A stretch of 64,000 nt of DNA from assembly GCA_022821645.1 (NCBI GenBank), contig JAJEDE010000018.1, positions 1 to 64,000 of the forward strand, written 5' to 3'. Origin of the DNA: Chloroflexota bacterium (GTDB lineage: Bacteria > Chloroflexota > UBA11872). Under the pieces are notes generated by a model. It was not told the DNA's origin. It ran no database searches and saw only the letters and a list, made by a program, of their open reading frames with translations. Numbering within the stretch: position 1 is the first letter of the stretch; each line of letters starts with the position of its first letter. A program made the position numbers and the translations under genes. This document shows, piece after piece, positions 10,885 through 27,444 of this stretch.

Positions 10885-12024
10885 TCAGTAGACCCAGGGG
10901 CAGATGCGGTACTTCACGCGGGCCTTGTATTCGGCCCACTTTTCCTCGCCGTACTTCTCGGCGCAGTGCGCCTCGTCGTCCCATTGACGCCAGGTGAACA
11001 GGGAGACGATGAAGATGAAGTAGGTCCAGGCCCACAGATTGGTGAAGTGACCGAATGACAGGCCGATGGCAAAACAGGCAAACCCTTCGCCCATGTAATT
11101 GAAGTGACGGGCTGCACCCCAGAAACCGCTGCAGAGGATCTTGCGGTCGCCGGCCTGGATGTACTGGGGCTCGATGATTCCCAGGAACTTGCGGTCGGGC
11201 CAGCGCTTAAACCAGTACTTCTGCAGGTTGCCGCCACGCGAGATGGACCAGCCGAAGACAAGGAGCAGGCCCGTTCCGACAAGCCACACGTAGGTCCAGG
11301 CCGTCGAGAATTCAGGGTTCGGATATACGGCCATGCCCCAAAGCGGGAGGATATATAGCCAGCCGTAGATGATGAGTCCGCCCCAGATCAACTTGAAGCC
11401 GAGCTTTTCATGAATCAGATCGTAGGTGTAGAGCTGGACGCGCTCGAAGATGAAGTAGTCAAGGATGTAGAGGGTGAAGAACGCGGTGTATAGAAAGACG
11501 CCGGGGTTGAAGTTATCGCCGAAGCGTTCGTAGTGCCAGGCGGCTCCGGACATGGCGTTGAGGACCAGCATGGTGCCGCCGACGACGTACAGATACATCT
11601 TCAGATCGAAGCGTTCGTTGAACAGCGAGTGCTCGAGAGACCGCCCGGTCCAGAAGGCGTGGAAGGGATTCTTAATTTCGCCTTGCGGCTGGCTGAGCAT
11701 GGCGACGAGTGCAATCAGGGCGGCGAATACGGTGCCTCCAGCCACGGCGTAAATCGCGGAGCGGTAGAACCAGTCGCGCGGCAACCCCAATGGCTCGATG
11801 GCCCATACGATGATGGCGATGATGAAGACCAGGAGACCGTTAAGACGATAGTTGCTGGGTTTACCGGTCTCCGGGTTGATGACGTAGCCGGGAACTCGGC
11901 GGGCCGGCAGGACCACCTGGGCAACGAAGAACACGGCAAAGATGACGAGCGGCGTGAAGAAGCCGAGGATCGCTTCGGTTGGGGAGAGTTCGAGAAGGTG
12001 TTCGATACCCAGCCACTCAATCAT
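10885..12024 (-). CDS. ERG4/ERG24-family sterol reductase, copy A
   Basis: A 379-residue multi-pass membrane protein of the ERG4/ERG24 family, the NADPH-dependent sterol C-14, C-7 and C-24(28) double-bond reductases. The C-terminal family signatures are clear: SGFWGAARHFNYMGE, matching the LxSGWWGxxRHxNYxGD box, and the end EKYGEEKWAEYKARVKYR followed by ICPWVY, matching the family's KYG...YRIIPxxY. About nine hydrophobic helices are visible. It is about two-thirds identical by eye to copy B just upstream (12149-13288), same length and same ends, so they are tandem duplicates. Such reductases are rare in bacteria. The position beside a sterol methyltransferase homologue supports a sterol substrate. 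Which double bond it reduces is unknown. Confidence 0.85.
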   Translation of the reverse strand: MIEWLGIEHLLELSPTEAILGFFTPLVIFAVFFVAQVVLPARRVPGYVINPETGKPSNYRLNGLLVFIIAIIVWAIEPLGLPRDWFYRSAIYAVAGGTVFAALIALVAMLSQPQGEIKNPFHAFWTGRSLEHSLFNERFDLKMYLYVVGGTMLVLNAMSGAAWHYERFGDNFNPGVFLYTAFFTLYILDYFIFERVQLYTYDLIHEKLGFKLIWGGLIIYGWLYILPLWGMAVYPNPEFSTAWTYVWLVGTGLLLVFGWSISRGGNLQKYWFKRWPDRKFLGIIEPQYIQAGDRKILCSGFWGAARHFNYMGEGFACFAIGLSFGHFTNLWAWTYFIFIVSLFTWRQWDDEAHCAEKYGEEKWAEYKARVKYRICPWVY

Positions 12025-12148
12025 GATCGATTACCCCGACTTCCAGCGCTGCGGCGATTATGGAGACGGGAAAGGAAATGGTCAACGAGCGACCCGCCGC
12101 TCCTCGCAGGGTCGGCGGCACACGTTTTGGCGCTCACGGGGTCCTGGC

Positions 12149-13288
12149 TCAGTAGACCCAGGGGCAAATGCGGTATTTGACGCGGGCCTGGTACTCGGCC
12201 CACTTCTCAGGGCCGTATTTCTGCGCGCAGTAGCGATCGTCTTCTCGCTGCCGGGTGACGAAGAGCGCGACGATCCAGATGAAGTAGGTCCAGGCCCAGA
12301 GGTTGGTGAAGTGGCCGAAGGCCAGGGCGATCGCGGAGGAATGGAACCACTCGCCAAGGTAATTCATGTGACGGGAGGCGCCCCAGAAGCCACTGACAAG
12401 GATCTTGCGGTCGCCGGCCTGGATGTATTCGGGTTCGATCAGTCCGAGAAACTTGCGGTCGGGCCAGCGCTTGAAGGTGTACTTCTGCATGTTGGCGCCG
12501 CGGCTAATCACCCAGCCCGTCATCCACAGGGCCGCTACGGCGATGAGCCAGACGTACGTCCAGACCGTGGAGAATCCGGGACTCGGATGCGCGGCCATGC
12601 CCCAGAGCGGGAGGATGTAGATCCAGCCGTAGACCATCAGACCGCCCCAGAACATCTTGAAGCCGAGCTTCTCGTAGATCACGTCGAAGGTGTAAAGCTG
12701 GACACGCTCGAAGATGAAGTAGTCCACTACATACCACGTATAGAATGCCGCGACCAGGAAAACTCCCGGATTGGCGTTCTCGCCGAAGCGCTCGACGTGC
12801 CAGGCGGCCGCGGAAAGGGCGTTGAGCGAAAACATGGAGCCGCCGACGACGTAAAAGTACATTTTCAGGTCGATGCGTTCTTTCAGGAACGACAGCTCCT
12901 GGACCCTTCCGAGCCAGAAGGCCGCAATCGGGTTCCTGGTTTCGTCTTGCGGCTGGCTGAAGACGGCTATGAGAGTAAGGATGGCGACGACGACCGTTCC
13001 GCCGGCCACCGAATAGACGGCTGATTCGTAGAACCAGGTGCGCGGCACTCCGGTGACTTCGGTCGCCCACACAGTGACCGCTATGGCATAGACCAGGAGG
13101 CCGTTGAGCCGGTAGCTGCGCGGTTTTCCCGTGTCCGTATTGGTGACGTAACCGGGAACGCGGATTCCGGGCAAAATGATCTGCACAACGAAGAATACGG
13201 CGAAGATAATCAGCGGAGTGAAGAACCCGAGAATGGCTTCCGCCGGGGAAAGCTCGAAGAGGTGTTCGATACCAAGCCACTCAATCAT
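12149..13288 (-). CDS. ERG4/ERG24-family sterol reductase, copy B
   Basis: Tandem paralogue of the reductase at 10885-12024: 379 residues, same start (MIEWLGIEHL) and same terminal YRICPWVY. The reductase signature reads SGFWGASRHMNYLGE. Differences cluster in the middle helices and loops, consistent with a change of sterol or of double-bond position. A GGAGG lies upstream of the ATG, and the 124 bases between B and A make a B-A operon likely. In eukaryotes the family supplies 14-, 7- and 24(28)-reductases; two diverged copies could cover two such steps. This assignment is inference. Confidence 0.85.
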   Translation of the reverse strand: MIEWLGIEHLFELSPAEAILGFFTPLIIFAVFFVVQIILPGIRVPGYVTNTDTGKPRSYRLNGLLVYAIAVTVWATEVTGVPRTWFYESAVYSVAGGTVVVAILTLIAVFSQPQDETRNPIAAFWLGRVQELSFLKERIDLKMYFYVVGGSMFSLNALSAAAWHVERFGENANPGVFLVAAFYTWYVVDYFIFERVQLYTFDVIYEKLGFKMFWGGLMVYGWIYILPLWGMAAHPSPGFSTVWTYVWLIAVAALWMTGWVISRGANMQKYTFKRWPDRKFLGLIEPEYIQAGDRKILVSGFWGASRHMNYLGEWFHSSAIALAFGHFTNLWAWTYFIWIVALFVTRQREDDRYCAQKYGPEKWAEYQARVKYRICPWVY

Positions 13289-13436
13289 GATCGAGGACTC
13301 CCTCCTCTAACGACATGGTCATTCCGGGTATCGGCGCCAGATCGGCCAAGAACGGTTGCAACGAAGTCCGCAGCAGGCGAGCCCTCATCACGACCATGCC
13401 GAACTGGAATCGTTACTTTGGCCGCCCGCGTGAGAG

Positions 13437-14297
13437 CTACCAGACTTCGTCCTTGGAGTAGAGGGACTTGGCGGGGCCGATCAGTTTCGGATCGGGCTGA
13501 CGCACGTGCCCTGCGACTCCCGGGTCATAGTCGAAGCTGCGCAGCACGTAGCGCATGCAACTGAGGCGGGCGCGCTTCTTGTCGTCCGACTTCACGACTA
13601 TCCAGGGGGAGGCCTTGGTATCGGTAGCGGCGAACATGAGCTTCTTGGCCTCGGTGAATTCGTCCCAGAGCGGGAGCGATCGCCGGTCAACATCACTCAG
13701 CTTCCACTGCTTGAGGCTGTCCTGGGCGCGGGACATGACGCGCCGGAGTTGCTCCTCCTGGCTGACCGAGAACCAGAACTTGAACAGCCGCAAGCCTTCA
13801 TTAATCAGCATTTCCTCAAACAGGACGGTGTCGCGGAGGAAGCGCACGGTTTCGGCGGGCGTGCAGAAACCCATCACGGGCTCGACCACTGCCCGGTTGT
13901 ACCAGGAGCGGTCGAAGAACACGATCTCTCCACTGCTTGGCAGGTGCTCCACATAGCGCTGGAAGTACCACTGGCCGCGTTCCCGCTCGGTCGGGGCCGG
14001 CAACGCCACGACCGACGCGCCGCGAGGATTGAGGTGCTCCATGAAGCGCTTGATGGTGCCGCCCTTGCCAGCGGCATCCCGCCCCTCGAACAACATGACA
14101 ATGCGCTGCCCGGACTCCTTGACCCAGTTCTGCAACTTCAGCAGTTCGACCTGCAGCTCGGCCTTGCGCGCCTCGTAGCGACGCCGCGGCATCTTGGTTG
14201 GATAGGGATAGGAGTCGCTAATGATCTGCTTGCGGCGGGAGCGTTCGACCTTGTGCAGGACTTCCTGCGGAATCCCGGCCGTTGGAATTAGAGTCAC
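13437..14297 (-). CDS. ppk2: Polyphosphate kinase 2 family protein
   Basis: PPK2-family kinase that moves phosphate between polyphosphate and nucleotides. Walker A is FEGRDAAGKGGTIKRF, and the second phosphate-binding motif is FFDRSWYNRAVVEPVMGFC. The basic lid (RRVMSRAQDSLKQWKLSD) and the C-terminal PWIVVKSDDKKRARL segment are canonical. The GTG at 14297 gives 286 residues, the family's usual length. The frame is open to an ATG at 14429, but that would overlap the start of the divergent flavoprotein gene and adds a non-conserved tail. There is no obvious link to the sterol genes around it. Confidence 0.88.
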   Translation of the reverse strand: MTLIPTAGIPQEVLHKVERSRRKQIISDSYPYPTKMPRRRYEARKAELQVELLKLQNWVKESGQRIVMLFEGRDAAGKGGTIKRFMEHLNPRGASVVALPAPTERERGQWYFQRYVEHLPSSGEIVFFDRSWYNRAVVEPVMGFCTPAETVRFLRDTVLFEEMLINEGLRLFKFWFSVSQEEQLRRVMSRAQDSLKQWKLSDVDRRSLPLWDEFTEAKKLMFAATDTKASPWIVVKSDDKKRARLSCMRYVLRSFDYDPGVAGHVRQPDPKLIGPAKSLYSKDEVW

Positions 14298-14450
14298 AGG
14301 ACTATCTCGGACTGAACCTGGACTTGCCACGGGATAACCGTACGAGGGTGGTTTGGCCGCGTCAATCGCTGAGGCGGGTGACACACGAGGGGATTCGAGG
14401 CGCGGTGGTAGGGTTCCACGGCGCAGCAACTAGCGAAGCGGAGCGCAACG

Positions 14451-15806
14451 CTGCGGCGGATTGCCGTTGTCGGTGGAGGTGTTTCCGGGCTAGGCGCCGC
14501 GTGGGCGCTGCATCAGCATCCGGACCGCTTTGACTTCCGGCTATACGAAGCGAACGGGCAGGTTGGCGGGAACGCGATTACCGCCGACATGTCGCAGGAC
14601 GACGGCAGCTCGATTCCCTTTGATATCTCCGTAACCGCGTGTATCCCATCGGTCTATCACCACATCCTGTTGTTGATGGAGAAGTTTGGCATCGGGCTGA
14701 TCGACACCCGATTCAGCTACAGCGTGAAATACGGAGGCCGTGTATACGCGCACGACTTCGATTCCGACATCAGGCAGCACCTGCAACCCGAGATCAGGAA
14801 GTTCCAACGCCTGTTGCGGCGTCTGCATCGCATTGGCTGGCTGACGCGTTCGCGGTCGAAGCTGCTGAATGCGCTGAACCCGTTCAATTACATCAGCATG
14901 GGGACGGTGCTGAACCTGGGCGGGTTTACCGGGGACTTCCGGTACAAGGTTCTGAAGCCGATGTTCGTCAATTTCCTAATGGCGACGAACGTGTTCGACA
15001 TGCCGGCCGCGCTGTTTTCGAGGTATCTCGAGTTCTTTGATATCGAGACCTCGACGCCAATGCAGACATGGGACCAGGGAACGCGGCGTATCTACGAGAA
15101 CCTGTCGGCGGACTTTAGGGACAAGATTTATCTCAGCCGACCGGTACGCAAGGTATACCGACGAGCAGATTGCGTCGAAGTCGAGGACGAAGACGGGCTG
15201 CGGGAGACGTTTGACGACGTAATCTTTGCCTGTAACGCGAACCAGACGCTCATGATCCTGGACAAGCCGACGTTGCTTGAGCGTTATCTTCTCTCATCGA
15301 TACGTTACGAGAGCGAGCTGCATAATCATGCGATCGTTCACTCCGACGCGTCGGTCCTGCCGGACAGTGAGGTGAAGCCGCTGGAAACGCGGAGTAATCA
15401 CATCGAGCAGTATGGGGCCAGGCCGGATAATTATGAGATCACGTACATCATGCACAACCAGCAACCGTGGGCCAATCGGTCCGACAAGCCGTGCCTGGTG
15501 ACCTATAACCCGATCAGCCGCATCGACGAAGGCAAGATCATCAAGCGGTGGTGGTTTCAGCACATCGTGCATGACGTAAAGCACGTTGCGGTGCTGATCA
15601 ACCTGTTCCAGTTCGTGCAGGGCAGGCGGCGAACGTGGCATTGCGGGGCGCACACGCTGGTCAACAGCCAGGAGACGTGTTTCGTCAGCGGGCTGGCCGC
15701 GGCCCGGCAGATCGGCGCCGACTACCCGTTTGACGATCCCGCGGCGCGGCGGTGGTTCAACTATTACGGGAGCATCATGTACGGGCTGGGGTTCAGGAAG
15801 GCGTAG
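14451..15806 (+). CDS. FAD-dependent amine-oxidase-like oxidoreductase, no canonical start
   Basis: Flavoprotein resembling the COG2907 NAD/FAD-binding group. The dinucleotide fold VVGGGVSGLGAAWAL is encoded at 14466-14510, followed by an acidic strand end (LYEANGQVGGN). The C-terminal FAD motif is WHCGAHTLVNSQE then VSGLAAARQIG. The first ATG in frame (14589) lies after the FAD motif. The frame is closed by TAG at 14409-14411, and no ATG, GTG or TTG occurs in between. CTG at 14451 has GGAG 7 bases upstream and is the best candidate; ATT at 14460 or ACG at 14448 are alternatives. A lost start codon or sequence error is also possible. Its place among sterol genes suggests a sterol or isoprenoid oxidation step. 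Confidence 0.75.
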   Translation: MRRIAVVGGGVSGLGAAWALHQHPDRFDFRLYEANGQVGGNAITADMSQDDGSSIPFDISVTACIPSVYHHILLLMEKFGIGLIDTRFSYSVKYGGRVYAHDFDSDIRQHLQPEIRKFQRLLRRLHRIGWLTRSRSKLLNALNPFNYISMGTVLNLGGFTGDFRYKVLKPMFVNFLMATNVFDMPAALFSRYLEFFDIETSTPMQTWDQGTRRIYENLSADFRDKIYLSRPVRKVYRRADCVEVEDEDGLRETFDDVIFACNANQTLMILDKPTLLERYLLSSIRYESELHNHAIVHSDASVLPDSEVKPLETRSNHIEQYGARPDNYEITYIMHNQQPWANRSDKPCLVTYNPISRIDEGKIIKRWWFQHIVHDVKHVAVLINLFQFVQGRRRTWHCGAHTLVNSQETCFVSGLAAARQIGADYPFDDPAARRWFNYYGSIMYGLGFRKA

Positions 15807-15850
15807 CGCGCAGGGCCACGGGGAGTCCCGGCGAACGGGCGCAGCGAGTT

Positions 15851-16960
15851 CTAAGGGGCGGAGGCGTCGCCAACGCCGGGTTCGGGATAGAACTGGGCGC
15901 AGTAGTAGCGGAAGGGCATGATCTCGCCGTCGGAACGGCAGAGGCGGGGGCGGCTGGTGTACTGCTTGCGGCCCCAGATGACGACGTCCTGCAGGACATC
16001 CTCCTTCTGCTGGAGCGCCATGAACTTGTTGATGAGGGGCGCGCGGAACTGTCGGGGAAGAAAGCCCAAGCCGACAAACAGCCGCTTCGGGCTGCGGATC
16101 TCCCGTACCTGGGAAACCAGCGTCATGTCGATGAGCGTGCCGTCAACCGGCGCGGCCAGCACCCAGAGCCGCATGTTCATGCCGATGGTGTGCTCGCGGA
16201 TGTCAACGAACGAATAGCCCAGCCCATAGATGTGGGTGTCGGCGGAAACGCTGAAAGACAGCCTGGCAAACCTGGCGACGGTGCGGACGCGCCTGAAGTT
16301 GAAGCGGCTCACGAGGCGGTGCCCGTCAATGGTCATTCGCTCGGGTCTGTCCACGTTGTCGTAGCCGTGGACGTAGCGCAGGTGGGCCAGGTCAACGGAG
16401 TTTTCGGTGGTCTCCTGGGGATGGCCTGGAAAACGCAGGGTCGTGATCTCGTAGTCGCACCACCCGTCTTGTTCCAACGGTTCAGTGGGAAGCGTCCATT
16501 GCGGCGGGCGCCCGTCGATGCCCCACCAGGCGAAGATCAGACCGTGAAAGTCGCGGGTCTCGAAGACGCGCAATTTGGCGGTCTTGGGCGCCGGGGCGAA
16601 GGGGGTGGCGACGCACTGGCCGGTTGTGTCGAACTCGTAGCCGTGGAAGGGGCAGACGAGCCGGCCCTCGCAGACCTGGCCTCCCGCCGACGGGCCCAGA
16701 TCGGCGCCCAGGTGCGGGCAGACGGCGTCGGCAACGCAGATGCGGCCGTCGGGGTCAGCCCAGGCGACGATGTTTTCGCCCATCCAGGTCTTCTGGATGA
16801 GCCCGGCCTCGCGGATGGCCTTGCGCGACGCGACGAAGTACCAGCCCTCCGGGAAAGGAGACAACTCAGGCGCAAGGACAGCCCGGCGGCGTTGCGCCGC
16901 CGGGGTCTCACGCTTGTTATCGTCAGACCCGGCAAGACCTGTTCCCTGCTGGACTTCCAT
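15851..16960 (-). CDS. Rieske oxygenase, sterol-desaturase (DAF-36/Neverland) type
   Basis: A 369-residue Rieske non-haem iron oxygenase. The 2Fe-2S site is CPHLGADLG (Cys81, His83) with CPFHGYEF (Cys103, His106). The mononuclear iron site is NSVDLAHLRYVHG (Asp190, His193, His198) with the third acid in QDVVIWGRKQY (Asp325). The order and the QD-x-x-IW motif resemble the eukaryotic cholesterol 7-desaturase DAF-36/Neverland and bacterial KshA. Bacterial SdmA, a Rieske sterol C-4 demethylase, is an alternative comparison. There is no membrane helix near the N-terminus, unlike animal DAF-36. It is divergent from the P450 fusion gene across a 136-base control region. Confidence 0.82.
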   Translation of the reverse strand: MEVQQGTGLAGSDDNKRETPAAQRRRAVLAPELSPFPEGWYFVASRKAIREAGLIQKTWMGENIVAWADPDGRICVADAVCPHLGADLGPSAGGQVCEGRLVCPFHGYEFDTTGQCVATPFAPAPKTAKLRVFETRDFHGLIFAWWGIDGRPPQWTLPTEPLEQDGWCDYEITTLRFPGHPQETTENSVDLAHLRYVHGYDNVDRPERMTIDGHRLVSRFNFRRVRTVARFARLSFSVSADTHIYGLGYSFVDIREHTIGMNMRLWVLAAPVDGTLIDMTLVSQVREIRSPKRLFVGLGFLPRQFRAPLINKFMALQQKEDVLQDVVIWGRKQYTSRPRLCRSDGEIMPFRYYCAQFYPEPGVGDASAP

Positions 16961-17096
16961 GTACGCCCGATATCTCCTCGCACTCGGCGATTGGTCCTTT
17001 GCCTCGCCTACTGTGCTAAAGTCAATTGAGTCCCGACACGCCCGATATAGCTTCAGTTTACAGGTTTGTCTGGGTTAGGCGCGGGGAGCCAGAGCG
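16961..17096. promoter_or_regulatory. Divergent control region with CGCCCGATAT direct repeats
   Basis: The 136 bases between the Rieske and P450-fusion starts contain two exact copies of CGCCCGATAT (16964-16973 and 17039-17048) in the same orientation, 75 bases apart, in a locally AT-richer stretch. Such repeats may be regulator sites co-ordinating both genes. The P450 gene has GGGGAG about 9 bases before its ATG. Confidence 0.35.
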
Positions 17097-19124
17097 ATGA
17101 CTCTCACTTCTGAGCCTGTTGCAAACAAACAGCTAAGTTTGCCCGACGAGCTCGTGCTGATGCTCCTCAACGAGGAGTCCGGCTACTTCTACCAGGTGCC
17201 TGGTTGGCACTTGAACTGCGCGGTCGTGGGCGCCGTCCTTGCCGAACTCTCACTCTTATCTCGCATCGATACGGATATGGACTCGCTGTTTCTTGTGGAT
17301 TCCACTGAAACCGGCAACCCGATATTGGACCAGATTCTGAAGGAGATTGCCAAGGAATCAAGTCAGCGGAACTCCCAGTACTGGATCGAACGGCTGGCGC
17401 CGCGTGCGGACGCGATTATTGACGCCACGCTGGATCGCCTGGTTGAACTGAATATCCTCGAGCACCACGAGGGGGAGTTCTGGACGCTGTCGCGTACTGC
17501 CTGGCAGTCTGAAATTCTCGGCAGTCCCGCCGAAGGCACGGCGGCTCAGTTCGTCAGAACGCGCATCGGCAAAGCCATCTTTAATGACGATATACCTGAC
17601 CCGCGGGATGTCATCATCGTCTGCCTCGTAAATACCTGCGATGTATTTCGCTTCATGTTTCAGCTCGAAGACCGGGATGAGGAGCGCATTCAGTTCATTT
17701 GCAACATGGATCTGATTGGACGCGCCATCGCCGCCGCGGTTTCCGAGAGCCTTGCCGGCCCGTCGCTTCGACATTCGGCCTTCACCAAGAAGATCCCGAC
17801 GGTTTCACTGTTTCGAATGCTGCTCAACCCGCATCTTCGCAGCGGGAACTTTCCCGCGCTCTTCGCGGATCTCGCCGAAGAATACGGCCCGGTGTTTGAG
17901 CTACGCCCTCCCTTCCAGGAACCCATGATCTTCCTGGCCGGTCCCGAGACAAATCGCTGGGTGCATCGCAGCGGGCGCATGTACCTCAGAACCAAGGACT
18001 ACTTTTCGGACTTCGAGAAGGTCTATGGCGCATCCGGCGTTCTGCCTTCACTGGATGGCGCGGAGCATTTTCGGCTTCGCAAGTCGCTGGGCGCAGCGTA
18101 TTCCCGCGGCAGACTCATGGGGCAGTTGGACTTCCTCTGCCGGCAGGCGCGCGAATTCATGGCGAGTTGGTCGGTTGGCGACGCCTACCCCGCCACCAGC
18201 ATGTGCCGGCGGATGATAAACGCGCAAATCTCGCCGCTTTTCATAAGTATCGATACGCAGGACATCTTTGACGATATGACGTCGTTCAAAGAACGGGCGC
18301 TTAACGTTCACATCTTGAAAATCCTGCCCAAATTCATGCTGAAGACTCCGGGCATGAAACGCCGAGCCAGGCTCCTGGACGATTTGGTTGAAAAGGTCCA
18401 AAGCGTACATACGCCGGCCCAGCGGGCTGGAGCTCCGCGGGACCTTGCGGATGACCTGCTCAGCCTGCATTCGAGCGATCCGCAGTTCGTCCCGGAGTCG
18501 AATCTGCCCTTCACCTTCTCGGCCGCGCTGATTGCAAGCGTGTACCTTGGCGATGCGTTTAGCTTCGTCTTGTACGCCATGGCATCGCAGCCGGAGATCT
18601 ACGAGAAGATCCAAGTCGAAGCTGATGCCGCGTTCGCCAACGGTGATCCTGACCCAAGTTCCCTCAGACCGCATGCGATCGACGTGACGCACCGCTTCCT
18701 GATGGAATGCCTGCGTGTGTACCCGATCGTCCCGGTGTCTTTGCGCAACGTGATGAATACGTGCGTGGTCGAGGACTACGAAATACCCGTGGGATCGCGG
18801 GTCTACATTGCCCAGACGGCGTCGCACTATATGGAAGAGGTCTTTCCCGACCCCTTCAAATTCGATATCGACCGCTATCTGCCTCCGCGCAACGAGCATC
18901 GCAGTCCCGGGTACGCGCCGTACGGGCTGGGCACGCACCGATGCCTTGGGACAGGGTGGCTGGAACTGCAGCTGGCGGTAAACGTGCTGACGGTCGCGCA
19001 CTACTTCACGCTCGAGGTCTCCCCACCCAACTTCAAGCTCGGATTCAACCCGCTGCCGTCAATGAAACCCAGCAAGAAGCTGAAGTTCCGCATTGCCGAG
19101 CAGCGACGCGAACTGAAGGTCTAA
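17097..19124 (+). CDS. GPP34 (GOLPH3-like) domain fused to cytochrome P450
   Basis: A 675-residue two-domain protein. Residues about 12-225 match GPP34/GOLPH3: LSLPDELVLMLLNEESG, the AVVGAVLAELSLLSRI helix, ETGNPILDQIL, the LDRLVELNILEHHEG helix-turn and DPRDVIIVCLVN. Residues about 235-670 are a P450: C-helix HFRLRKSLG, ExxR as ECLR (537-540), FKFDIDRYLPPR, and haem loop YGLGTHRCLG with Cys616. The I-helix reads YLGDAFSF, where most P450s have AGxDTT, so the usual oxygen-activating Thr is missing. GOLPH3 binds phosphoinositide membranes in eukaryotes. Here the domain may dock the P450 at a lipid surface. Neighbours suggest a sterol substrate. The fusion itself is seen in one uninterrupted frame. 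Confidence 0.85.
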   Translation: MTLTSEPVANKQLSLPDELVLMLLNEESGYFYQVPGWHLNCAVVGAVLAELSLLSRIDTDMDSLFLVDSTETGNPILDQILKEIAKESSQRNSQYWIERLAPRADAIIDATLDRLVELNILEHHEGEFWTLSRTAWQSEILGSPAEGTAAQFVRTRIGKAIFNDDIPDPRDVIIVCLVNTCDVFRFMFQLEDRDEERIQFICNMDLIGRAIAAAVSESLAGPSLRHSAFTKKIPTVSLFRMLLNPHLRSGNFPALFADLAEEYGPVFELRPPFQEPMIFLAGPETNRWVHRSGRMYLRTKDYFSDFEKVYGASGVLPSLDGAEHFRLRKSLGAAYSRGRLMGQLDFLCRQAREFMASWSVGDAYPATSMCRRMINAQISPLFISIDTQDIFDDMTSFKERALNVHILKILPKFMLKTPGMKRRARLLDDLVEKVQSVHTPAQRAGAPRDLADDLLSLHSSDPQFVPESNLPFTFSAALIASVYLGDAFSFVLYAMASQPEIYEKIQVEADAAFANGDPDPSSLRPHAIDVTHRFLMECLRVYPIVPVSLRNVMNTCVVEDYEIPVGSRVYIAQTASHYMEEVFPDPFKFDIDRYLPPRNEHRSPGYAPYGLGTHRCLGTGWLELQLAVNVLTVAHYFTLEVSPPNFKLGFNPLPSMKPSKKLKFRIAEQRRELKV

Positions 19125-19164
19125 CAGACCAGGGAACTTCCCGAGCGGCCGGGAACGAGCGCGG

Positions 19165-20229
19165 CTACAGGGGTTTGCGGGCCAGGAAGCAGTACAACGG
19201 CGTGAAGATCCCGGTCTTGCCGCCAGCGACGTAGGCGTTGGCGGTGCGATCCATCAGCCCAACGACTTCGGCGGAACCCTTCGGGAACAATCCCAGCATC
19301 TCGGCCAGCCTTGATGCCGCGATGAACACCTTGCGGCCCAGTGGAATCCGGTGCAGGGCGTTGCCCAGCGTGCTGCGCTGGGTCACCATGGGCTGATACC
19401 ACGGGATGGTGGGACCGCTCTCGGCGATGGCCCGGTCCCTGCCCTCGATGACCTGAAATCCCACGGATTCAAGGGCTCGGTCGACTTCCCCCGTCGTCGC
19501 GATGTCCTTGAGCGCGATGCCGTGCATGAGCTCCTGCTTGATGGCCCGATGCCGATCGTCGTCGGCATCGAACTTGTCCGTCATGCACATTTCCTGACCC
19601 CAGAAGAGGGCGCCGGGCTTCAGCACGCGATAGATCTCGGCGAACGCGCCCACCTTGTCGGGCGCATGGCAGGTCGATTCGATTGCGTAGCCGCGGTCGA
19701 ACGTCTGGTCAGCGACGGCGCCCATGTCCATGAAGCTGCACGCGAGATAGTCGACCATGTGATCGAGCCCCGCCTCGGCGTTCAGGGCTTTCGCTTTGTC
19801 CAACTGGACTTCACTGCTATTGACCCCCATGACCCGGACGCCAGCCTCGCGGACGACGCGGCGCATTGGGCCGCCGATCCCGCACCCGACATCGATCACC
19901 GTCATACCCTTGCTCAACTCCAGCTTGGCAATCATGAGTCGCTGGTGACGGATCTTGGAGTCTTCCAGGCTCTCCCGCGGCGATAGCGGCGCGAAGTGGA
20001 GGGATGCGCCCCAACCGAACACCATGAACTCACTGCAAAGGTCGTAATACTCCGTGACGGTCTTGGTGTGGTCGTAGCCCGCCGCGGCGGCATCCTCCGC
20101 CGTCGCTCGGCGCGTCCATCCATCCAAGTGCTGCACGCGGCCGCGGGTATCCGATCCACGGTAGGCGGCCTTGAGCCCGCTGGATAGATTGCGGAGATTC
20201 GCAATCTCCTTCGAAAGCGGGAATTGCAT
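19165..20229 (-). CDS. Sterol C-24 methyltransferase homologue
   Basis: A 354-residue SAM-dependent methyltransferase with all the sterol methyltransferase (ERG6/SMT) regions. Region I is YYDLCSEFMVFGWG then SLHFAP (residues 61-81). The SAM site is VIDVGCGIGGPMRR (111-124). Region III is YAIESTCHAPD (181-191). Region IV is RVLKPGALFW then MTDKFD (201-220). ERG6-type enzymes transfer a methyl group to the C-24 double bond of the sterol side chain. The eukaryotic YEYGWG is replaced by FMVFGWG here, which may alter substrate fit. Bacterial homologues have been reported from uncultured, partly sponge-associated lineages. It is convergent with the P450 fusion and shares its strand with the RND gene upstream. 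Confidence 0.9.
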   Translation of the reverse strand: MQFPLSKEIANLRNLSSGLKAAYRGSDTRGRVQHLDGWTRRATAEDAAAAGYDHTKTVTEYYDLCSEFMVFGWGASLHFAPLSPRESLEDSKIRHQRLMIAKLELSKGMTVIDVGCGIGGPMRRVVREAGVRVMGVNSSEVQLDKAKALNAEAGLDHMVDYLACSFMDMGAVADQTFDRGYAIESTCHAPDKVGAFAEIYRVLKPGALFWGQEMCMTDKFDADDDRHRAIKQELMHGIALKDIATTGEVDRALESVGFQVIEGRDRAIAESGPTIPWYQPMVTQRSTLGNALHRIPLGRKVFIAASRLAEMLGLFPKGSAEVVGLMDRTANAYVAGGKTGIFTPLYCFLARKPL

Positions 20230-20418
20230 GCCTAATTCAGGAAAAAGCTCAAAGGCTGGGTGAGCAAGAGGTACCTGCTTTGGATGGTCCTAGCTTAACC
20301 GAATAGCGCGCTGTCAATGGCAACGCCACAAGCGTCTCTCGGCGGCATTCGTACCGACGATCCCCAGCCCGCCGGCACACCACAGAGGCTGCCCGTCCGC
20401 AAAGCCGGAGGGTGTCAA

Positions 20419-22896
20419 TCAGGACTGCGCCTGTTCCTCTTCGTGACGCCGAAAAACGTCGTCGATGGCCAGGTCCAGATCCGACCACTCGCGCTCCACC
20501 ATCGAGCGCAGGCGCATGTTCTGGTAGGCGCCCCAGATGGTCATGGCCGGTGGCACCAGCACAACGGCGACGATGAGCGAGTAGGCGATCGTGATGGCTG
20601 CCGTTATGCCGAACTGCTGCGACCCGGCCAACGGCGAAGCCGCCAACACGCCCAGGCCAAGCGCGGTGGTCATGGCGGAGCCCAATAGTGCCGACCCGGT
20701 GGTGGCCAGGGTTCGAACGGCCGCTTCCTCCGGGTTGCGCAGGCGGGCGAACTCCTCCCGATATCTATGGATCACGTGGATGGTGTAGTCCACCCCGATG
20801 CCGATCGAGAGCGCGGTGATGATTGACGTGATGATCGTGTAGGGGATGCCGAGCAGCGCCATCGTGCCGAGCACGCAGATAAGGACGAGCACGATGGGAC
20901 CGACGGCGACGATCGCCAGGGCCGGCTGCCGAAGCGTTATCCAGAAAAAGATGGCCAGGACCGTCAGCGCCGCCGCGACCGTGGTGGCGATGGCCTCGGT
21001 CTGGCGCGCCGTGATCGAGTCGGTGACGGTGATCGAGATGATGCTCTGCGAGGTCGCCGTGATTGCGTCGTCGTCACCGGCCCAGAGTGCCTCGAGTTCC
21101 TGCTGGAGGACCTTGGTTGCCTGCGTATCGCCGCCATAGCTCTGGAACTGGAGCAGCATGGTGTCAATGCCCTGCGGGTTGTTGACGAGCAGGCGGGACA
21201 GCGCGGGGTCCCTGGCCTCGATCCGGTCGAGCACTTCCTGCATCAGGTGCGGATCGAGCCGCACCCCTGCCGAAGCCTCGCGGAACAGCGCCGCGATCTC
21301 GGGATCGTACTTGTCTCCGGGCTGGCCGCTCTGCGTGGTCCAGTCACGCACCAGCAATTCGTACGAGGCCTGAATCGGTCCGGCCGCGGTGGGCGGACGC
21401 CGCGTTTCGTCGGCAAAGGCGTTCGTGAGGTCCTGCACGTTGAGGAGGGTGCGCGTCTGCGTCGCCTCGGCCTTGATGAGCACGCTGGTCACCTCGGCCG
21501 AGCCACCGACCGCCGCCTCAAGGGTGTCCATGTCCGCGTGCACGACTCCGCCCCTGGGGAGGATGTCCTTGATGCTGAATTCCGACTTGAGACCCCGGAC
21601 CGATATCCCGAGCGCGACGGTAATCGCGAGCACGACCAGGATGTACGGCAGGGGCCAGCGGGTCACGCTGCGACCGATCACCCCGGCCAATCCCTGGACA
21701 CCCGGCAACGCGTTGACGATCGGACGGGCGGGCTTCAGCTTGCCGCGGGCCTCGCGCCGCCGGTCAATGATGACCCGACTGGCCGGGACCAGCGTCAGCA
21801 TGACGATCAGGCTCATGCCAACGCCCATGCCGGCGACGACTCCGAAGTCGCGAACGATGCCAATCGGCGAGAACAGGCTGGCCAGCATGCCCACGATGGT
21901 GGTGACGGCGGCCAGGACCAGCGGAACCGTGACGTGACTGAGACCCAGGCGAATGGCCGTGAGCACGTCCTGCCCCTCGACCCGCTGCTCGCGGTAATGC
22001 GAGATGGTCTGGATCGCATAGTCCACCGTCAGCCCGATCACGATGATCGGCACCAGCGAGGTCAGCGAGTTGGGCGGGCCGATGAGGCCCAGCGCGTTCG
22101 GGCCGAGCCAGCCTTCCGCGCCGATGATCCAGATGATGGACGTGAGGAGTCCCGCCAGCGTCAGCCACATGTCCGACAACGCGCGCGTGAAGAGCAGCAG
22201 CAGCAACGCAATCAGCAGGAACGCCACCCCGATCAGCGGCAACATGCCTTGCTCGATGCCCGCCTTGTAGGCGTCCTCGATTACGTAGAACGAGACGCTG
22301 GTTGCCTGTAGCGGTCCGTCGGACGCGGCAGCCAATTCGTTGACCGTCCGTTCGGCGTCCACAACGCGCTCGTCGGCGGTGTCGAGCAGGCGAATGTTGC
22401 CGATCGCAATCTTCGTGCCGTCCGTATCGGTGCCGGTCATCAGGGCAAGCAGCGGCTGGACTTCCGGAAGTACGCGTACCGCGTCTATCTGCGCCTGCGT
22501 AACCGACTCCAGGCTCTCGACTTGAAGCGCGAACTTGATCAGCGTGGCGGGTGAGAACACCGGGTTTTCGGGGGCCAGCAACTGTTGCACCCCCGGATCG
22601 CTGACGATGTCATTGAGCAAGGCGTCCATCTGGGACAGCCCGGCGGGCGTGAGCGCGTCGCCGCGGAACAGGAGGGTGACGGCGCTGACCTCACCGTGGT
22701 CGCCGAACAGCTCATTGATCTCGTCCATGGCGTCGGCAATGGGGCTGTTGTCAGGCAGCGTCTCCGCCGTTGAAGGGAGCGGCGCACGCACCGCGCCGCC
22801 GGCGCCGAGGGCAATGGTGACGATGAAGATGACGAGAAGCGTTATCCAGGGTCGAACCGTGACCAGCGAGCTGAATTTAGTGAGTACCTGGTTCAT
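20419..22896 (-). CDS. RND/MMPL-family exporter (sterol/hopanoid transporter type)
   Basis: An 825-residue RND-superfamily transporter. It has one helix near the N-terminus (17-37), a periplasmic loop of about 170 residues, a helix bundle including PIIVIGLTVDYAIQTISHYR and VVAGMGVGMSLIVMLTLVP, then a second half with the same plan (ILVVLAITVALGISVRG; IGIGVDYTIHVIHRYRE; ALGLGVLAAS). The GxxxDYxI-x-x-Ixx-YRE motifs mark the MMPL/HpnN/Patched-like branch that moves lipids, hopanoids and sterols. There are no fusion-protein or outer-membrane partner genes nearby. Its position 190 bases upstream of the sterol methyltransferase, same strand, makes a sterol-trafficking role (compare bacterial BstA) attractive but inferred. 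Confidence 0.82.
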   Translation of the reverse strand: MNQVLTKFSSLVTVRPWITLLVIFIVTIALGAGGAVRAPLPSTAETLPDNSPIADAMDEINELFGDHGEVSAVTLLFRGDALTPAGLSQMDALLNDIVSDPGVQQLLAPENPVFSPATLIKFALQVESLESVTQAQIDAVRVLPEVQPLLALMTGTDTDGTKIAIGNIRLLDTADERVVDAERTVNELAAASDGPLQATSVSFYVIEDAYKAGIEQGMLPLIGVAFLLIALLLLLFTRALSDMWLTLAGLLTSIIWIIGAEGWLGPNALGLIGPPNSLTSLVPIIVIGLTVDYAIQTISHYREQRVEGQDVLTAIRLGLSHVTVPLVLAAVTTIVGMLASLFSPIGIVRDFGVVAGMGVGMSLIVMLTLVPASRVIIDRRREARGKLKPARPIVNALPGVQGLAGVIGRSVTRWPLPYILVVLAITVALGISVRGLKSEFSIKDILPRGGVVHADMDTLEAAVGGSAEVTSVLIKAEATQTRTLLNVQDLTNAFADETRRPPTAAGPIQASYELLVRDWTTQSGQPGDKYDPEIAALFREASAGVRLDPHLMQEVLDRIEARDPALSRLLVNNPQGIDTMLLQFQSYGGDTQATKVLQQELEALWAGDDDAITATSQSIISITVTDSITARQTEAIATTVAAALTVLAIFFWITLRQPALAIVAVGPIVLVLICVLGTMALLGIPYTIITSIITALSIGIGVDYTIHVIHRYREEFARLRNPEEAAVRTLATTGSALLGSAMTTALGLGVLAASPLAGSQQFGITAAITIAYSLIVAVVLVPPAMTIWGAYQNMRLRSMVEREWSDLDLAIDDVFRRHEEEQAQS

Positions 22897-23700: not shown

Positions 23701-25137
23701 ATGAACCCGGCGATGCCTGATCAAGTGCCTTCGAACAGGCGGTCGTGCGATCTCCTGATTCGTAACGGGCAGGTCGTCACGATGGATGCGGAGCGGCGGA
23801 TCTATCGGCCAGGCGCGCTTGCGATTGCCGGTTCGCGCATCGTCGAGGTCGGCCGCGACGCGGACCTGACCGATCGTTTTGACGCGAAGCAGACCGTGGA
23901 TGCCGGCGGGGGCATCGTGCATCCGGGCTTCATCGACGCGCACAACCACATCGTGCACACGTCCTGTCGAGGGGTCTTCGGCAACATTCATGACACCAGC
24001 TCCTCGCCGATCAACTTCGCCGACTGGAAGGCCGGTGTAACGCAGCACGACGAAGCCGCGGCCACGGCAATGGCCTGCCTGGAGATGCTGCGGTGCGGCT
24101 TCACGATGTTTATCGAGCCGGGTTCGCTGTTTTCGACTGACGCCGCCGCGGCGGCGGTTGAACGGGTGGGGCTGCGAGCCCTGTTTGCCCCCCTCTATCT
24201 CTGGGACCGGCGCGAGTGTTTTGAGGCAATGCCCGCGCTGGAGAGCCCGAGCCTGATGGCTCGGGCGCCGATTGACCGCGCGCGGTCGTTGGCGCAATTG
24301 GATGCGGAGTTACACCGCAACGACAATCCCGGGGCGCTGGTTCGCGGGTATGTCTTCGTCTACGGAGTTGGAACCGGATCACCCGAGTTGCTGCAGGCCG
24401 CTCATACCTGCGCTCGCGACAACAACGTCCCGCTGCATCTGCACGCCGGTTACGTTCCCGAGGAGGCCAAGATCTATCAGGCATTGAACGGCACCAGCCA
24501 GGTGGCGCACCTGCACGAACTGGGCGTGCTGGACGAGCACACGGTTGTGGTGCACGCGAATGCGCTGGACGAGACCGACGAAGCGGCGGTCCACGAGTCA
24601 GGCTGTCAGATCGTGTGGTGCCCGACGGCTTTCTTCTCGCTGGGTATCGGAGGTCGCACCCGCTTCAAGATGGCGGAGCGATATCGGCACGGCGTCCGCG
24701 TGTCGCTAGGCACTGACGGCGCCTTCGACTGCCCGCCGAGCGAGACCATGCTGGCGGCGCACCTCCAGGCGCAAACCTACGCCGACTCGATGTCACCCGG
24801 CGCACTCCTGGAGATGCAGACCCTCAACGCCGCCGCGGCGGCAGGCATGGAAACCGACCTGGGCAGCCTGGAGCCGGGCAAGCGGGCCGACGTGGTGGTT
24901 CGATCGCCACGGGCGGCCGAGGCCTATCCCGATAACAACCCGGTGCATCGGTTGGCACTGACGCTGCGAAGCGGCAGCGTGGACACGGTTCTGCTGAACG
25001 GTGAGATCGTGCTCAGCGGCGGGCGATCGACTCGAGTGGACGAGGCCGAGACTCTCCGGGCTGTTTCGGATTCGGTGGTTGCGCGAGCGCAGCGGCTGGG
25101 GATTGATCTGGCTCCCCAATGGCCAATGGTCGGGTAA
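23701..25137 (+). CDS. Amidohydrolase (SsnA/chlorohydrolase-like deaminase)
   Basis: A 478-residue amidohydrolase of the TrzN/AtzA/SsnA class that hydrolyses or deaminates heterocycles and similar amines. It opens with LLIRNGQVVTMDA, then the metal motif GFIDAHNHIVHT (HxH). The further metal ligands sit in VPLHLHAGYVPEE, TVVVHANALDETD and VSLGTDGAFDCPPS (Asp). The terminal LGSLEPGKRADVVVRS is the typical composite-domain closure. Codons before the first conserved residues contain ATGs at 23701 and 23713. The substrate is not predictable. It follows the VOC gene by 25 bases and may be cotranscribed. Confidence 0.88.
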   Translation: MNPAMPDQVPSNRRSCDLLIRNGQVVTMDAERRIYRPGALAIAGSRIVEVGRDADLTDRFDAKQTVDAGGGIVHPGFIDAHNHIVHTSCRGVFGNIHDTSSSPINFADWKAGVTQHDEAAATAMACLEMLRCGFTMFIEPGSLFSTDAAAAAVERVGLRALFAPLYLWDRRECFEAMPALESPSLMARAPIDRARSLAQLDAELHRNDNPGALVRGYVFVYGVGTGSPELLQAAHTCARDNNVPLHLHAGYVPEEAKIYQALNGTSQVAHLHELGVLDEHTVVVHANALDETDEAAVHESGCQIVWCPTAFFSLGIGGRTRFKMAERYRHGVRVSLGTDGAFDCPPSETMLAAHLQAQTYADSMSPGALLEMQTLNAAAAAGMETDLGSLEPGKRADVVVRSPRAAEAYPDNNPVHRLALTLRSGSVDTVLLNGEIVLSGGRSTRVDEAETLRAVSDSVVARAQRLGIDLAPQWPMVG

Positions 25138-27045: not shown

Positions 27046-27444
27046 TCAATTGATCGATATAGGAACCCAGGCAATGCCGTCGACGTGCTCGAAGTGACGG
27101 TCGGCCGAAACGAGGTCGGCGCCGGTTTCCATCGCGTGCGCCGCAATCCACATGTCGTTGGTCGGAATGGGACGGCCTTTGGCACGTAGCGAAGCCGAGA
27201 TTCGGGCGTAGCGGTCGGCGGTGACGGATCCCACGGGTATAACGGAAACGAATGAGTTGTCCAGAAAAGCGCGCAGGTCAGCCATGTTCTGCTCGAAGCG
27301 CGATCCTGACCGGAATCCGGCAAGCAACTCACCGACCACAATCGCTGAGAGAAACACCTCCTCGGCTACCCGCACGAGCTCAGCGACGTGACGGTGTCCA
27401 TGCGCCAGCAGGCTGAACGCATTGGAGTCGAGGAGTAGCCTCAC
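27046..27444 (-). CDS. vapC: VapC-type PIN-domain toxin
   Basis: A 132-residue PIN ribonuclease. The acidic active-site residues are in LLLDSNAFSLL (Asp7), VVGELLAGF (Glu), NDMWIAAHA (Asp) and LVSADRHFEHVDG (Asp). It is of the tRNA(fMet)-specific-endonuclease look (LLDSNAF, SGSRFEQN). Its ATG overlaps the antitoxin stop by four bases, the classical vapBC coupling. It appears intact, unlike the other vapC in the window at 45969. Confidence 0.92.
   Translation of the reverse strand: MRLLLDSNAFSLLAHGHRHVAELVRVAEEVFLSAIVVGELLAGFRSGSRFEQNMADLRAFLDNSFVSVIPVGSVTADRYARISASLRAKGRPIPTNDMWIAAHAMETGADLVSADRHFEHVDGIAWVPISIN

What the first reader, a model, noticed from the sequence alone, without database searches (positions are those of the whole stretch)
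10885..22896. Possible bacterial sterol-tailoring island
Within 12 kb lie two ERG4/ERG24-type reductases, a sterol-desaturase-like Rieske oxygenase, a P450, an ERG6/SMT-type methyltransferase, an FAD oxidoreductase and an MMPL/RND lipid exporter. Family knowledge: late ergosterol synthesis uses ERG6, a C-22-desaturase P450, desaturases and ERG4 24(28)-reductase. The same activities seem to be assembled here in a bacterium, with a Rieske enzyme standing in for a eukaryotic desaturase. No squalene epoxidase or cyclase is in the window, so it may modify host or environmental sterols. The joint role is inference; the individual families are read from motifs.
Basis: partly seen in the sequence, partly recalled or inferred. 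Interest (0 to 1): 0.92.

Follow-up and report, generated by a model that had tools for sequence, protein, structure and literature searches.

The report
Sponge-symbiont sterol-modifying gene island
A set of genes that probably remodels sterols sits in a bacterium, apparently a sponge symbiont, that seems unable to make sterols itself; related sets recur in several bacterial phyla, which bears on whether unusual 'sponge' sterols, used as the oldest chemical fossils of animals, are partly bacterial.

Summary
10885-22896 encodes two ERG4/ERG24 reductases, PPK2, an FAD enzyme, a Rieske oxygenase with KshA_C domain, a GPP34-P450 fusion, a sterol methyltransferase (SMT) and an MMPL transporter. The genome shows no squalene epoxidase and one cyclase, of hopene type. 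The set is conserved in relatives. Of 225 SMT relatives, the best 80 were examined: they lie in MAGs named as nine phyla. P450 and Rieske both accompany the SMT in 44 of 80, in four named phyla. SMT identity exceeds ribosomal S2 identity in 20 of 20 non-Chloroflexota genomes (medians 72%, 48%), so horizontal spread is likely. Of 31 carrier genomes searched, 27 show no oxidosqualene cyclase and 18 no cyclase. In two Nitrospirota the core adjoins CYP51, ERG24 and squalene epoxidase-cyclase genes, which ties it to sterols. Best reading: a sterol-tailoring island that acts on acquired sterols where synthesis is absent. The detailed ergosterol parallel is not supported; no substrate or product is shown. 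Published bacterial SMTs and sponge sterol clusters make it a new variant.

The parts
10885..12024 (-). ERG_A, ERG4/ERG24-family sterol reductase (379 aa)
   Evidence: PF01222 4e-36; best solved structure 4quv delta14-sterol reductase, 106 bits; conserved beside the core in the genus; 73-74% homolog next to SMT + Rieske in Dadabacteria L093/L097
12149..13288 (-). ERG_B, second ERG4/ERG24-family reductase (tandem copy; relatives' orthologs of one copy are 69-72% identical to the other)
   Evidence: PF01222 1.3e-39; 4quv 115 bits; cross-copy identities
13437..14429 (-). PPK2 polyphosphate kinase 2, inside the island; its position varies between relatives, probably a passenger
   Evidence: TIGR03707 1.3e-108, over cut-off; beside MMPL in L037-L039 but between ERG and FAD in L040/L042/L052/L053
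14451..15806 (+). FAD-dependent oxidoreductase, amine-oxidase superfamily; start codon uncertain (CTG 14451 proposed)
   Evidence: PF01593 6.3e-15, PF13450 5.5e-10; best PDB LkcE amine oxidase 4.6e-26, then 2b9w putative aminooxidase 4.3e-08; 23 loci rows 76-94% identical to the window
15851..16960 (-). Rieske non-haem iron oxygenase with KshA_C domain
   Evidence: PF00355 3.9e-17, PF19298 1e-23; KshA best PDB hit 1.1e-25; C81, H83, C103, H106 and D190-x2-H193-x4-H198 invariant in the 26 rows aligned
17097..19124 (+). GPP34-P450 fusion: N-terminal GPP34 domain (aa 15-217), C-terminal cytochrome P450
   Evidence: PF05719 1.8e-31, PF00067 9.9e-36; E537, R540 and haem C616 invariant in the 36 rows aligned; AlphaFold pLDDT 83.9 and P450 fold matches
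19165..20229 (-). SMT-A, sterol methyltransferase
   Evidence: Methyltransf_11 1.3e-16 + Sterol_MT_C 7.7e-16, over cut-offs; 37-40% identical to four SMT-B copies, one of which (L120) lies in a squalene epoxidase-cyclase cluster
20419..22896 (-). MMPL/RND lipid transporter with sterol-sensing-like domain
   Evidence: PF03176 1.8e-43, PF12349 2.4e-11; HAE3 TIGR00921 1.2e-59, below cut-off

Best explanation
The region is a sterol-tailoring island of a Chloroflexota bacterium, probably a sponge symbiont. The bacterium does not appear to build sterols: no squalene epoxidase, oxidosqualene cyclase or SdmA-like gene was found, and its one cyclase is of the hopene type. It probably takes sterols from the sponge host, its food or other symbionts. 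Proposed working: SMT-A adds a carbon to the sterol side chain at or near C-24; one or both ERG4/ERG24-type reductases remove double bonds; the Rieske oxygenase oxidises or desaturates the ring system; the P450, perhaps held at the membrane by its GPP34 domain, makes a further oxidation; the FAD enzyme oxidises or shifts a double bond; the MMPL/RND pump moves the product between membranes or out of the cell. Shown: gene content, no detectable synthesis pathway, conservation, linkage of the core to sterol-synthesis genes in two Nitrospirota. Inferred: substrate, each reaction, order, transport direction, sponge origin of the window itself.
For: Families. No PF08491 match in 61 genomes, own included. 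Of 25 cyclase places in 23 of these, 24 carry the hopene-cyclase DxDDT(A/S) motif and 1 is an untyped fragment. Best SdmA-model score in 31 genomes 73 bits, own genome 32, against 415 for L118's SdmA-like protein. SMT-A carriers G019, G025 and G031 have no cyclase match. Of 31 carrier genomes reached through named loci, 18 have no cyclase match and 4 have OSC, which shows that the search can find OSC. In L120 the core shares 13 kb with ERG24, CYP51 (7.7e-100) and a squalene epoxidase-cyclase fusion; in L118 with CYP51-like, ERG24-like, SdmA-like and SdmB-like genes and SMT-B, the epoxidase-cyclase lying just past the fetched end on a contig of the same length. All 20 SMT-A genomes among 151 relatives also match the GPP34-P450 at 60% or more, two of them only in its P450 part at a contig end. 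Distances of SMT, P450 and Rieske correlate (r 0.60-0.68, permutation p 0.001).
Against: No enzyme activity or lipid data. 11 of 53 well-flanked SMT-A loci have none of five partners, including 4 of 4 Actinomycetota, 5 of 7 unassigned and 2 of 24 Chloroflexota; in Dadabacteria (5 of 5) no P450 match is seen. So SMT-A also occurs without the set. Three relatives have the P450 without SMT-A. The ERG pair is beside the core only in the window's genus, one copy in two Dadabacteria loci. The matching MMPL is confined to Chloroflexota (28 of 28). MAGs are incomplete and can be mis-binned, so absence of OSC is weaker than in closed genomes. KshA_C Rieske enzymes are also known from steroid breakdown; degradation genes were not searched. 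The distance correlation could in part reflect shared descent within lineages.
Confidence: 0.78

Rival explanations
1. Sterol breakdown: the Rieske enzyme is a KshA-like hydroxylase and the island starts the catabolism of host sterols.
For: KshA_C domain 1e-23 and KshA best PDB hit; PMC5790920 (search listing with start of abstract only) reports wide steroid catabolism in metagenomes.
Against: An SMT and two reductases build up or saturate sterols rather than degrade them; in two Nitrospirota a homolog of the same Rieske (60-61%) lies beside biosynthetic sterol genes. Whether the genome holds later degradation genes was not tested.
Confidence: 0.09
2. Hopanoid or other triterpenoid tailoring: the substrates are the bacterium's own hopanoids.
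For: The genome has a hopene-type cyclase and a neighbouring HpnE-like gene (gene name from reading the sequence); the MMPL resembles HpnN-type transporters (TIGR03480 5e-31, below cut-off).
Against: G019, G025 and G031 carry SMT-A (G025 and G031 the core cluster) without any cyclase match, as do 18 of 31 carriers in the named set. The core adjoins sterol genes in L118/L120.
Confidence: 0.05
3. Specialised metabolite pathway: the set makes an oxidised defensive steroid or an unrelated lipid, not a membrane sterol.
For: P450, Rieske and an LkcE-like FAD enzyme are common in natural-product pathways (recalled; LkcE hit); a sponge saponin pathway has been proposed from symbiont sterol genes (PMC7074536, passages read).
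Against: None of the island's eight genes is a glycosyltransferase; recurrence in several phyla suggests a general role in the habitat (inference).
Confidence: 0.08

Closest known systems
Bacterial sterol methyltransferases of uncultured and sponge-associated bacteria (Brown et al. 2023, PMC10070321)
   Same: SMTs with methyltransferase and C-terminal sterol domains; some in clusters; some methylate up to three times in vitro. One Chlamydiae SMT comes from a MAG without other sterol genes and is suggested to act on host sterols, so sterol salvage by an SMT is already proposed
   Different: 13 of 24 tested SMTs had an OSC in the cluster or MAG; 'Rieske' and 'ERG4' do not occur in the main text. 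Whether a tested SMT is an SMT-A ortholog could not be checked (supplements not available)
CSGs, clusters of steroid genes in Ircinia symbionts (Kelly et al. 2022, PMC9531527), and the msb cluster of Melophlus (PMC7074536)
   Same: Sponge symbionts in many phyla; CSGs spread by HGT; ERG24, CYP51, (squalene epoxidase-)cyclase, SMT. The L118/L120 neighbourhoods contain such genes
   Different: The window island lacks OSC, squalene epoxidase and SdmA-like genes and has a GPP34-P450, KshA_C Rieske, FAD enzyme and MMPL instead; these were not named in the passages read
C-14 sterol reductase (PDB 4quv)
   Same: ERG4/ERG24 family, aligned through the C-terminal signature
   Different: Only 106 and 115 bits against 242 for the ERG24 beside CYP51 in L120: a separate branch
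3-ketosteroid 9alpha-hydroxylase KshA
   Same: Rieske + KshA_C architecture
   Different: Homologs in L118/L120 lie in a biosynthetic neighbourhood; no ketosteroid context seen

Membership tests
Sterol 24-C-methyltransferase (SMT/ERG6) | SAM methyltransferase domain plus Sterol_MT_C domain | tested here: met
   PF08241 1.3e-16, PF08498 7.7e-16, both over cut-off
Sterol 24-C-methyltransferase (SMT/ERG6) | methylates sterol side chain | not testable with these tools
   needs expression and GC-MS
Sterol 24-C-methyltransferase (SMT/ERG6) | canonical sterol-binding region I (YEYGWGxSFHF; motif recalled) | tested here: inconclusive
   four SMT-B rows have YE[FY]GWGxSFHF; the window and its 12 orthologs in A1 have M[VE]FGWG[AE]SLHF; SMT-A of L120 has MVYGWGESLHF: related but altered
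ERG4/ERG24 sterol reductases | PF01222 over gathering score, C-terminal signature | tested here: met
   125 and 137 bits vs 27; alignments to 4quv
C-14 reductase subfamily (ERG24) | close similarity to a characterised C-14 reductase | tested here: inconclusive
   106/115 bits vs 242 for the CYP51-linked ERG24 of L120
SdmA 4beta-methylsterol monooxygenase | NF052579 match | tested here: not met
   31 bits (cut-off 600); the SdmA-like protein of L118 scores 415, itself also below the cut-off
KshA-type Rieske oxygenases | Rieske cysteine/histidine ligands, mononuclear iron D-x2-H-x4-H, KshA_C domain | tested here: met
   activity not tested
CYP51 sterol 14-demethylases | family-level similarity | tested here: not met
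   70 bits to CYP51 chains against 338 for the CYP51 of L120; by fold CYP184A1 and BM3 rank first, CYP51 15th
C-22 sterol desaturase P450s (ERG5/CYP61/CYP710) | similarity to a characterised C-22 desaturase | not tested
   no reference sequence was available
De novo sterol cluster (CSG/msb type) | squalene epoxidase and oxidosqualene cyclase | tested here: not met
   none found in the genome
HpnN / BstA transporters | NCBIfam equivalog score | tested here: not met
   HpnN 107.5 vs 751.85, BstA 36 vs 1400 bits; MMPL Pfam met

The most novel reading that the evidence does not exclude
SMT-A is a functionally separate sterol methyltransferase, with an altered region I, that works after a canonical SMT-B. 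13 of the 20 SMT-A genomes among 151 relatives also hold an SMT-B, and some OSC-bearing genomes hold both within one fetched locus (L118, L120, L148, L159). It would carry out the later or unusual methylations (second/third at C-24, or C-26) on sterols made elsewhere in the holobiont. A horizontally spread salvage island in OSC-less symbionts, and not only the sponge, would then make the 'demosponge' sterols behind 24-isopropylcholestane or 26-methylstigmastane.
Probability: 0.18. Interest if true: 0.95.

Novelty: new variant of a known kind. Interest (0 to 1): 0.77.

Why it matters
Unusual sponge sterols are read as possibly the earliest animal biomarkers, and their biosynthetic origin is debated (PMC10070321, parts read). 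A set of probable sterol-modifying enzymes shared by several phyla of apparent sponge symbionts, mostly without detectable means to make sterols, would mean that bacteria remodel sterols of the holobiont. It gives a concrete gene set for testing who makes which sterol, and a P450 architecture (GPP34-P450) for which I know no function.

Tried and rejected
Rejected: (a) hopanoid substrate: carriers without any cyclase match exist. (b) Rieske = SdmA: far below L118's SdmA-like protein. (c) P450 = CYP51: far below the CYP51 of L120. (d) Point-by-point ergosterol pathway: no support for C-22 or C-24(28) specificity. (e) Virus origin: one SMT scan of viral contigs found no relative. (f) PPK2 and the 8343-10377 genes as part of the island: PPK2 changes place within the genus; the 8343-10377 genes are linked in genus genomes, and outside it only weak 31% matches to one of them were seen.

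Led nowhere: AlphaFold of the FAD protein was too poor to use (pLDDT 57). The second structure aligner was not available. Searches for bin names in papers confirmed only the jk18x series. My first motif pattern for OSC could not match DCTAE; the 23 places typed each showed the hopene motif, and searches repeated the OSC check. The first SMT tree picked the wrong paralog for L118 and L148; rebuilt it. The first S2 comparison failed and was redone. Steroid-degradation genes were not searched.

Full report
Check of the observation. The window lies in contig C4 (71,955 b) of a 3.55 Mb MAG, 95% complete and 7% contaminated. Between 10885 and 22896 lie eight genes: ERG_A (-), ERG_B (-), PPK2 (-), FAD (+), Rieske (-), P450 (+), SMT (-) and MMPL (-). 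Two features were not mentioned: PPK2, and the GPP34 domain (PF05719 1.8e-31) in front of the P450. The FAD gene has no ATG, GTG or TTG between the upstream stop and its dinucleotide motif; CTG at 14451 is a possible start (inference).

The genome does not make sterols as far as can be seen. PF08491 (squalene epoxidase) has no match in 61 genomes, own included. PF13249 gives one cyclase; it carries DIDDTAE, the hopene-cyclase motif (recalled), and follows an HpnE-like gene (name from reading the sequence). In the 61 genomes there are 25 cyclase places in 23 genomes: 23 show DxDDTA, one DTDDTS (L056), one fragment could not be typed (L079). With the SdmA model (NF052579) the best score in 31 genomes is 73 bits (G019) and in the own genome 32 bits, the window Rieske itself; L118's SdmA-like protein scores 415. 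That PF13249 and PF08491 can find the real thing in such bacteria is shown below.

Conservation among kin. Of 151 genomes, 22 match SMT at 1e-30. In 20 of these the best copy is the ortholog SMT-A (74-93% apart from the own copy; three read from partial matches); in 2 only a 40-45% paralog (SMT-B) is seen. 13 of the 20 also have SMT-B. All 20 match the GPP34-P450 at 60% or more (two, G009 and G023, only in the P450 part at a contig end); G027, G029 and G035 have it without SMT-A. Nineteen neighbourhoods were fetched and two short loci added: SMT, P450, FAD, Rieske and MMPL lie together in genus, family and class relatives with changed order, some cut by contig ends; the ERG pair is beside them in the genus. 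L050 (G019) has SMT-A alone; L054 and L055 are SMT-B loci. G019, G025 and G031 have SMT-A but no cyclase match.

Spread over phyla. A scan of the species-genome collection with the SMT-A alignment gave 225 relatives; the best 80 were kept and only these were examined. Several are the same contigs as those of the relatives above, judged by equal contig lengths, so the two sets are not independent. NCBI names put the 80 in Chloroflexota 38, Gemmatimonadota 9, Pseudomonadota 8, Actinomycetota 6, Thermodesulfobacteriota (all Dadabacteria) 5, Acidobacteriota 3, Nitrospirota 2, Deinococcota 1, Nitrospinota 1, unassigned 7. By the thresholds the GPP34-P450 occurs in 55 of 80, Rieske in 50, FAD in 29, MMPL in 28, ERG_A in 7. 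P450 and Rieske together: 44 of 80, in Chloroflexota 26 of 38, Gemmatimonadota 8 of 9, Pseudomonadota 6 of 8, Nitrospirota 2 of 2, unassigned 2 of 7; in none of the Dadabacteria (5), Actinomycetota (6), Acidobacteriota (3), Deinococcota (1) and Nitrospinota (1) loci, though some contigs are short. The P450 of Acidobacteriota (47%) and Deinococcota (34%) is distant. In the 53 loci with at least 8 kb on both sides: P450 38, Rieske 41, both 37, none of five 11 (Actinomycetota 4 of 4, unassigned 5 of 7, Chloroflexota 2 of 24). In L104 (Acidimicrobiia) a P450 without GPP34 match lies beside the SMT. The window's type of MMPL is confined to Chloroflexota (28 of 28), but other RND-type pumps stand near the SMT elsewhere: AcrB-type in L147 (a similar 1,059-aa protein in L133), other MMPL proteins with sterol-sensing-like domain in L153, L097 and L159.

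Horizontal transfer. As a yardstick I compared ribosomal protein S2. Of 28 genomes given, 26 had S2; 24 were compared with the own genome. In the 20 not named Chloroflexota (3 unassigned) S2 identity had a median of 48% and SMT-A 72%; SMT was higher in 20 of 20. One housekeeping protein is a modest yardstick. The rebuilt SMT tree (79 rows: window and 78 of 80 loci) needs 18 label changes among named groups; the labels are still strongly clustered (all groups 22 changes, shuffled mean 39.5), and Dadabacteria, Acidobacteriota and Nitrospirota each form one group, so transfer is not rampant. Distances correlate for SMT-P450 (47 loci, r 0.60), SMT-Rieske (45, r 0.68) and P450-Rieske (36, r 0.67), p 0.001; outside Chloroflexota SMT-FAD (6 loci, r 0.23, p 0.20) and P450-FAD (5, r 0.58, p 0.18) do not. 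Mis-binned contigs could produce some of the mixing.

Sponge origin. The 80 titles fall into name series: RHO 17, SB 17, jk18x 13, 'bin NODE' 8, COS 7, long-code isolates 7, IRC 4, p16x 3, APA 2, other 2. jk18x names occur in the Ircinia paper PMC9531527. RHO, COS, IRC and APA fit host names in PMC8163846 (one passage read), which is inference. The rest is recall or unknown. The window's nearest SMT relatives are p16x44bins.42, jk18x7bins.100 and jk18x22bins.70.

Link to sterol synthesis. Of 32 carriers given as handles, 31 were held (not L093): 18 have no cyclase match and 13 have one or more. Four (genomes of L118, L120, L148, L159) have an OSC with VSDCTAE (motif recalled); the other cyclases show hopene-type motifs (DxDDTA, or variants DDAA, DDSA and DDTS). 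The OSCs are long; the one of L120 (the same gene as L181, judged by equal contig length) holds PF08491, PF13249 and PF13243 in one protein and matches osq_cycl at 4.6e-218, below that model's cut-off. In L120 the order along about 13 kb is ERG24, CYP51 (best PDB hit CYP51, 7.7e-100), squalene epoxidase-cyclase, SMT-B, a 296-aa protein, Rieske, SMT-A, GPP34-P450. In L118 it is a CYP51-like P450 and an ERG24-like protein (not scanned; read as near copies of L120's), SdmA-like (2.6e-124), SdmB-like (3e-90), SMT-B, FAD, a 298-aa protein, Rieske, SMT-A, GPP34-P450; both Sdm scores lie below the cut-offs. The epoxidase-cyclase locus of that genome (L182) starts 51 b beyond L118's end on a contig of the same length, 70,077 b. 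In the L148 and L159 genomes the OSC is on a contig of another length. This neighbourhood is the strongest evidence that the core acts on sterols, and it rests on two Nitrospirota.

The parts. SMT-A keeps the SAM and C-terminal motifs but its region I differs from SMT-B. I recall that the first tyrosine of this motif controls multiple methylation in yeast Erg6; this comes from no call. The window reductases score 106 and 115 bits against 4quv, the ERG24 of L120 242. The P450 keeps ExxR and the haem cysteine in the 36 rows aligned (window and 35 of 44 intact copies). By my own reading of the alignment its I-helix lacks the usual threonine; this was not computed. The AlphaFold model is good (pLDDT 83.9) and matches P450 structures. 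The Rieske protein keeps both iron sites in the 26 rows aligned (window and 25 of 45). The FAD protein's relatives in the PDB are LkcE and a putative aminooxidase, 2b9w, which I recall to be a fatty-acid double-bond isomerase.

Comparison with what is known. Papers: PMC10070321 (abstract, first part of the text, results section 7, discussion, passages); PMC9531527 (passages); PMC8163846 (one passage); PMC7074536 (passages); PMC13277303 (abstract and passages), whose 8,14-reductase is described as a different, bacteria-only protein. Bacterial SMTs, OSC-bearing clusters in sponge symbionts, an SMT in a bacterium without other sterol genes, and the squalene epoxidase-cyclase fusion (MsbE) are published. 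I found no paper describing the OSC-less island or a GPP34-P450; the searches were made, in an open-access library only, and I saw listings for most results. In one search, which ranks papers holding more terms first, the 12 listed of 4,873 all lack 'GPP34'. Supplements could not be read, so an SMT-A may be among the SMTs that Brown et al. tested.

Verdict. A sterol-tailoring island acting on acquired sterols is the best reading (0.78). The novelty lies in the gene set, its recurrence in several phyla and the absence of the synthesis pathway, not in bacterial SMTs as such.

Noticed in passing
L180-L183; L120:2967-6572 (same gene as L181): Long oxidosqualene cyclases (open frames 1,132-1,216 aa) with a squalene-epoxidase-like N-terminal part in two Nitrospirota, a Gammaproteobacterium and an unassigned bin; the fusion was confirmed by Pfam in the L120/L181 gene and is already described as MsbE in PMC7074536.
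   Followed up: yes
L054, L055, L086: SMT-B copies in Chloroflexota. In L055 the SMT-B lies beside a different ERG-type reductase and a second Rieske enzyme (73 bits to the SdmA model), in a genome (G019) without a cyclase match: perhaps a second salvage cluster.
   Followed up: partly
G000:C11:123246-123851: A separate GPP34 homolog (40% identical) in the own genome and many relatives: possible source of the fused domain.
   Followed up: no
L147:3682-7050; L153:1949-4633; L097:6162-8492; L159:4581-7019: Different RND-type pumps (AcrB-type or other MMPL) stand near SMT-A in other phyla, as if any lipid pump could fill the place.
   Followed up: partly
L104:9097-12398: In an Acidimicrobiia MAG SMT-A stands between an SDR dehydrogenase and a P450 without a GPP34 match instead of the usual set.
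   Followed up: partly
window 5643-7163: Glycoside hydrolase family 32 protein.
   Followed up: no
window 23701-25137; 27046-27444; 27841-28983: Amidohydrolase, PIN-domain protein (possible toxin of a toxin-antitoxin pair) and enolase-superfamily (MR/MLE) protein.
   Followed up: no
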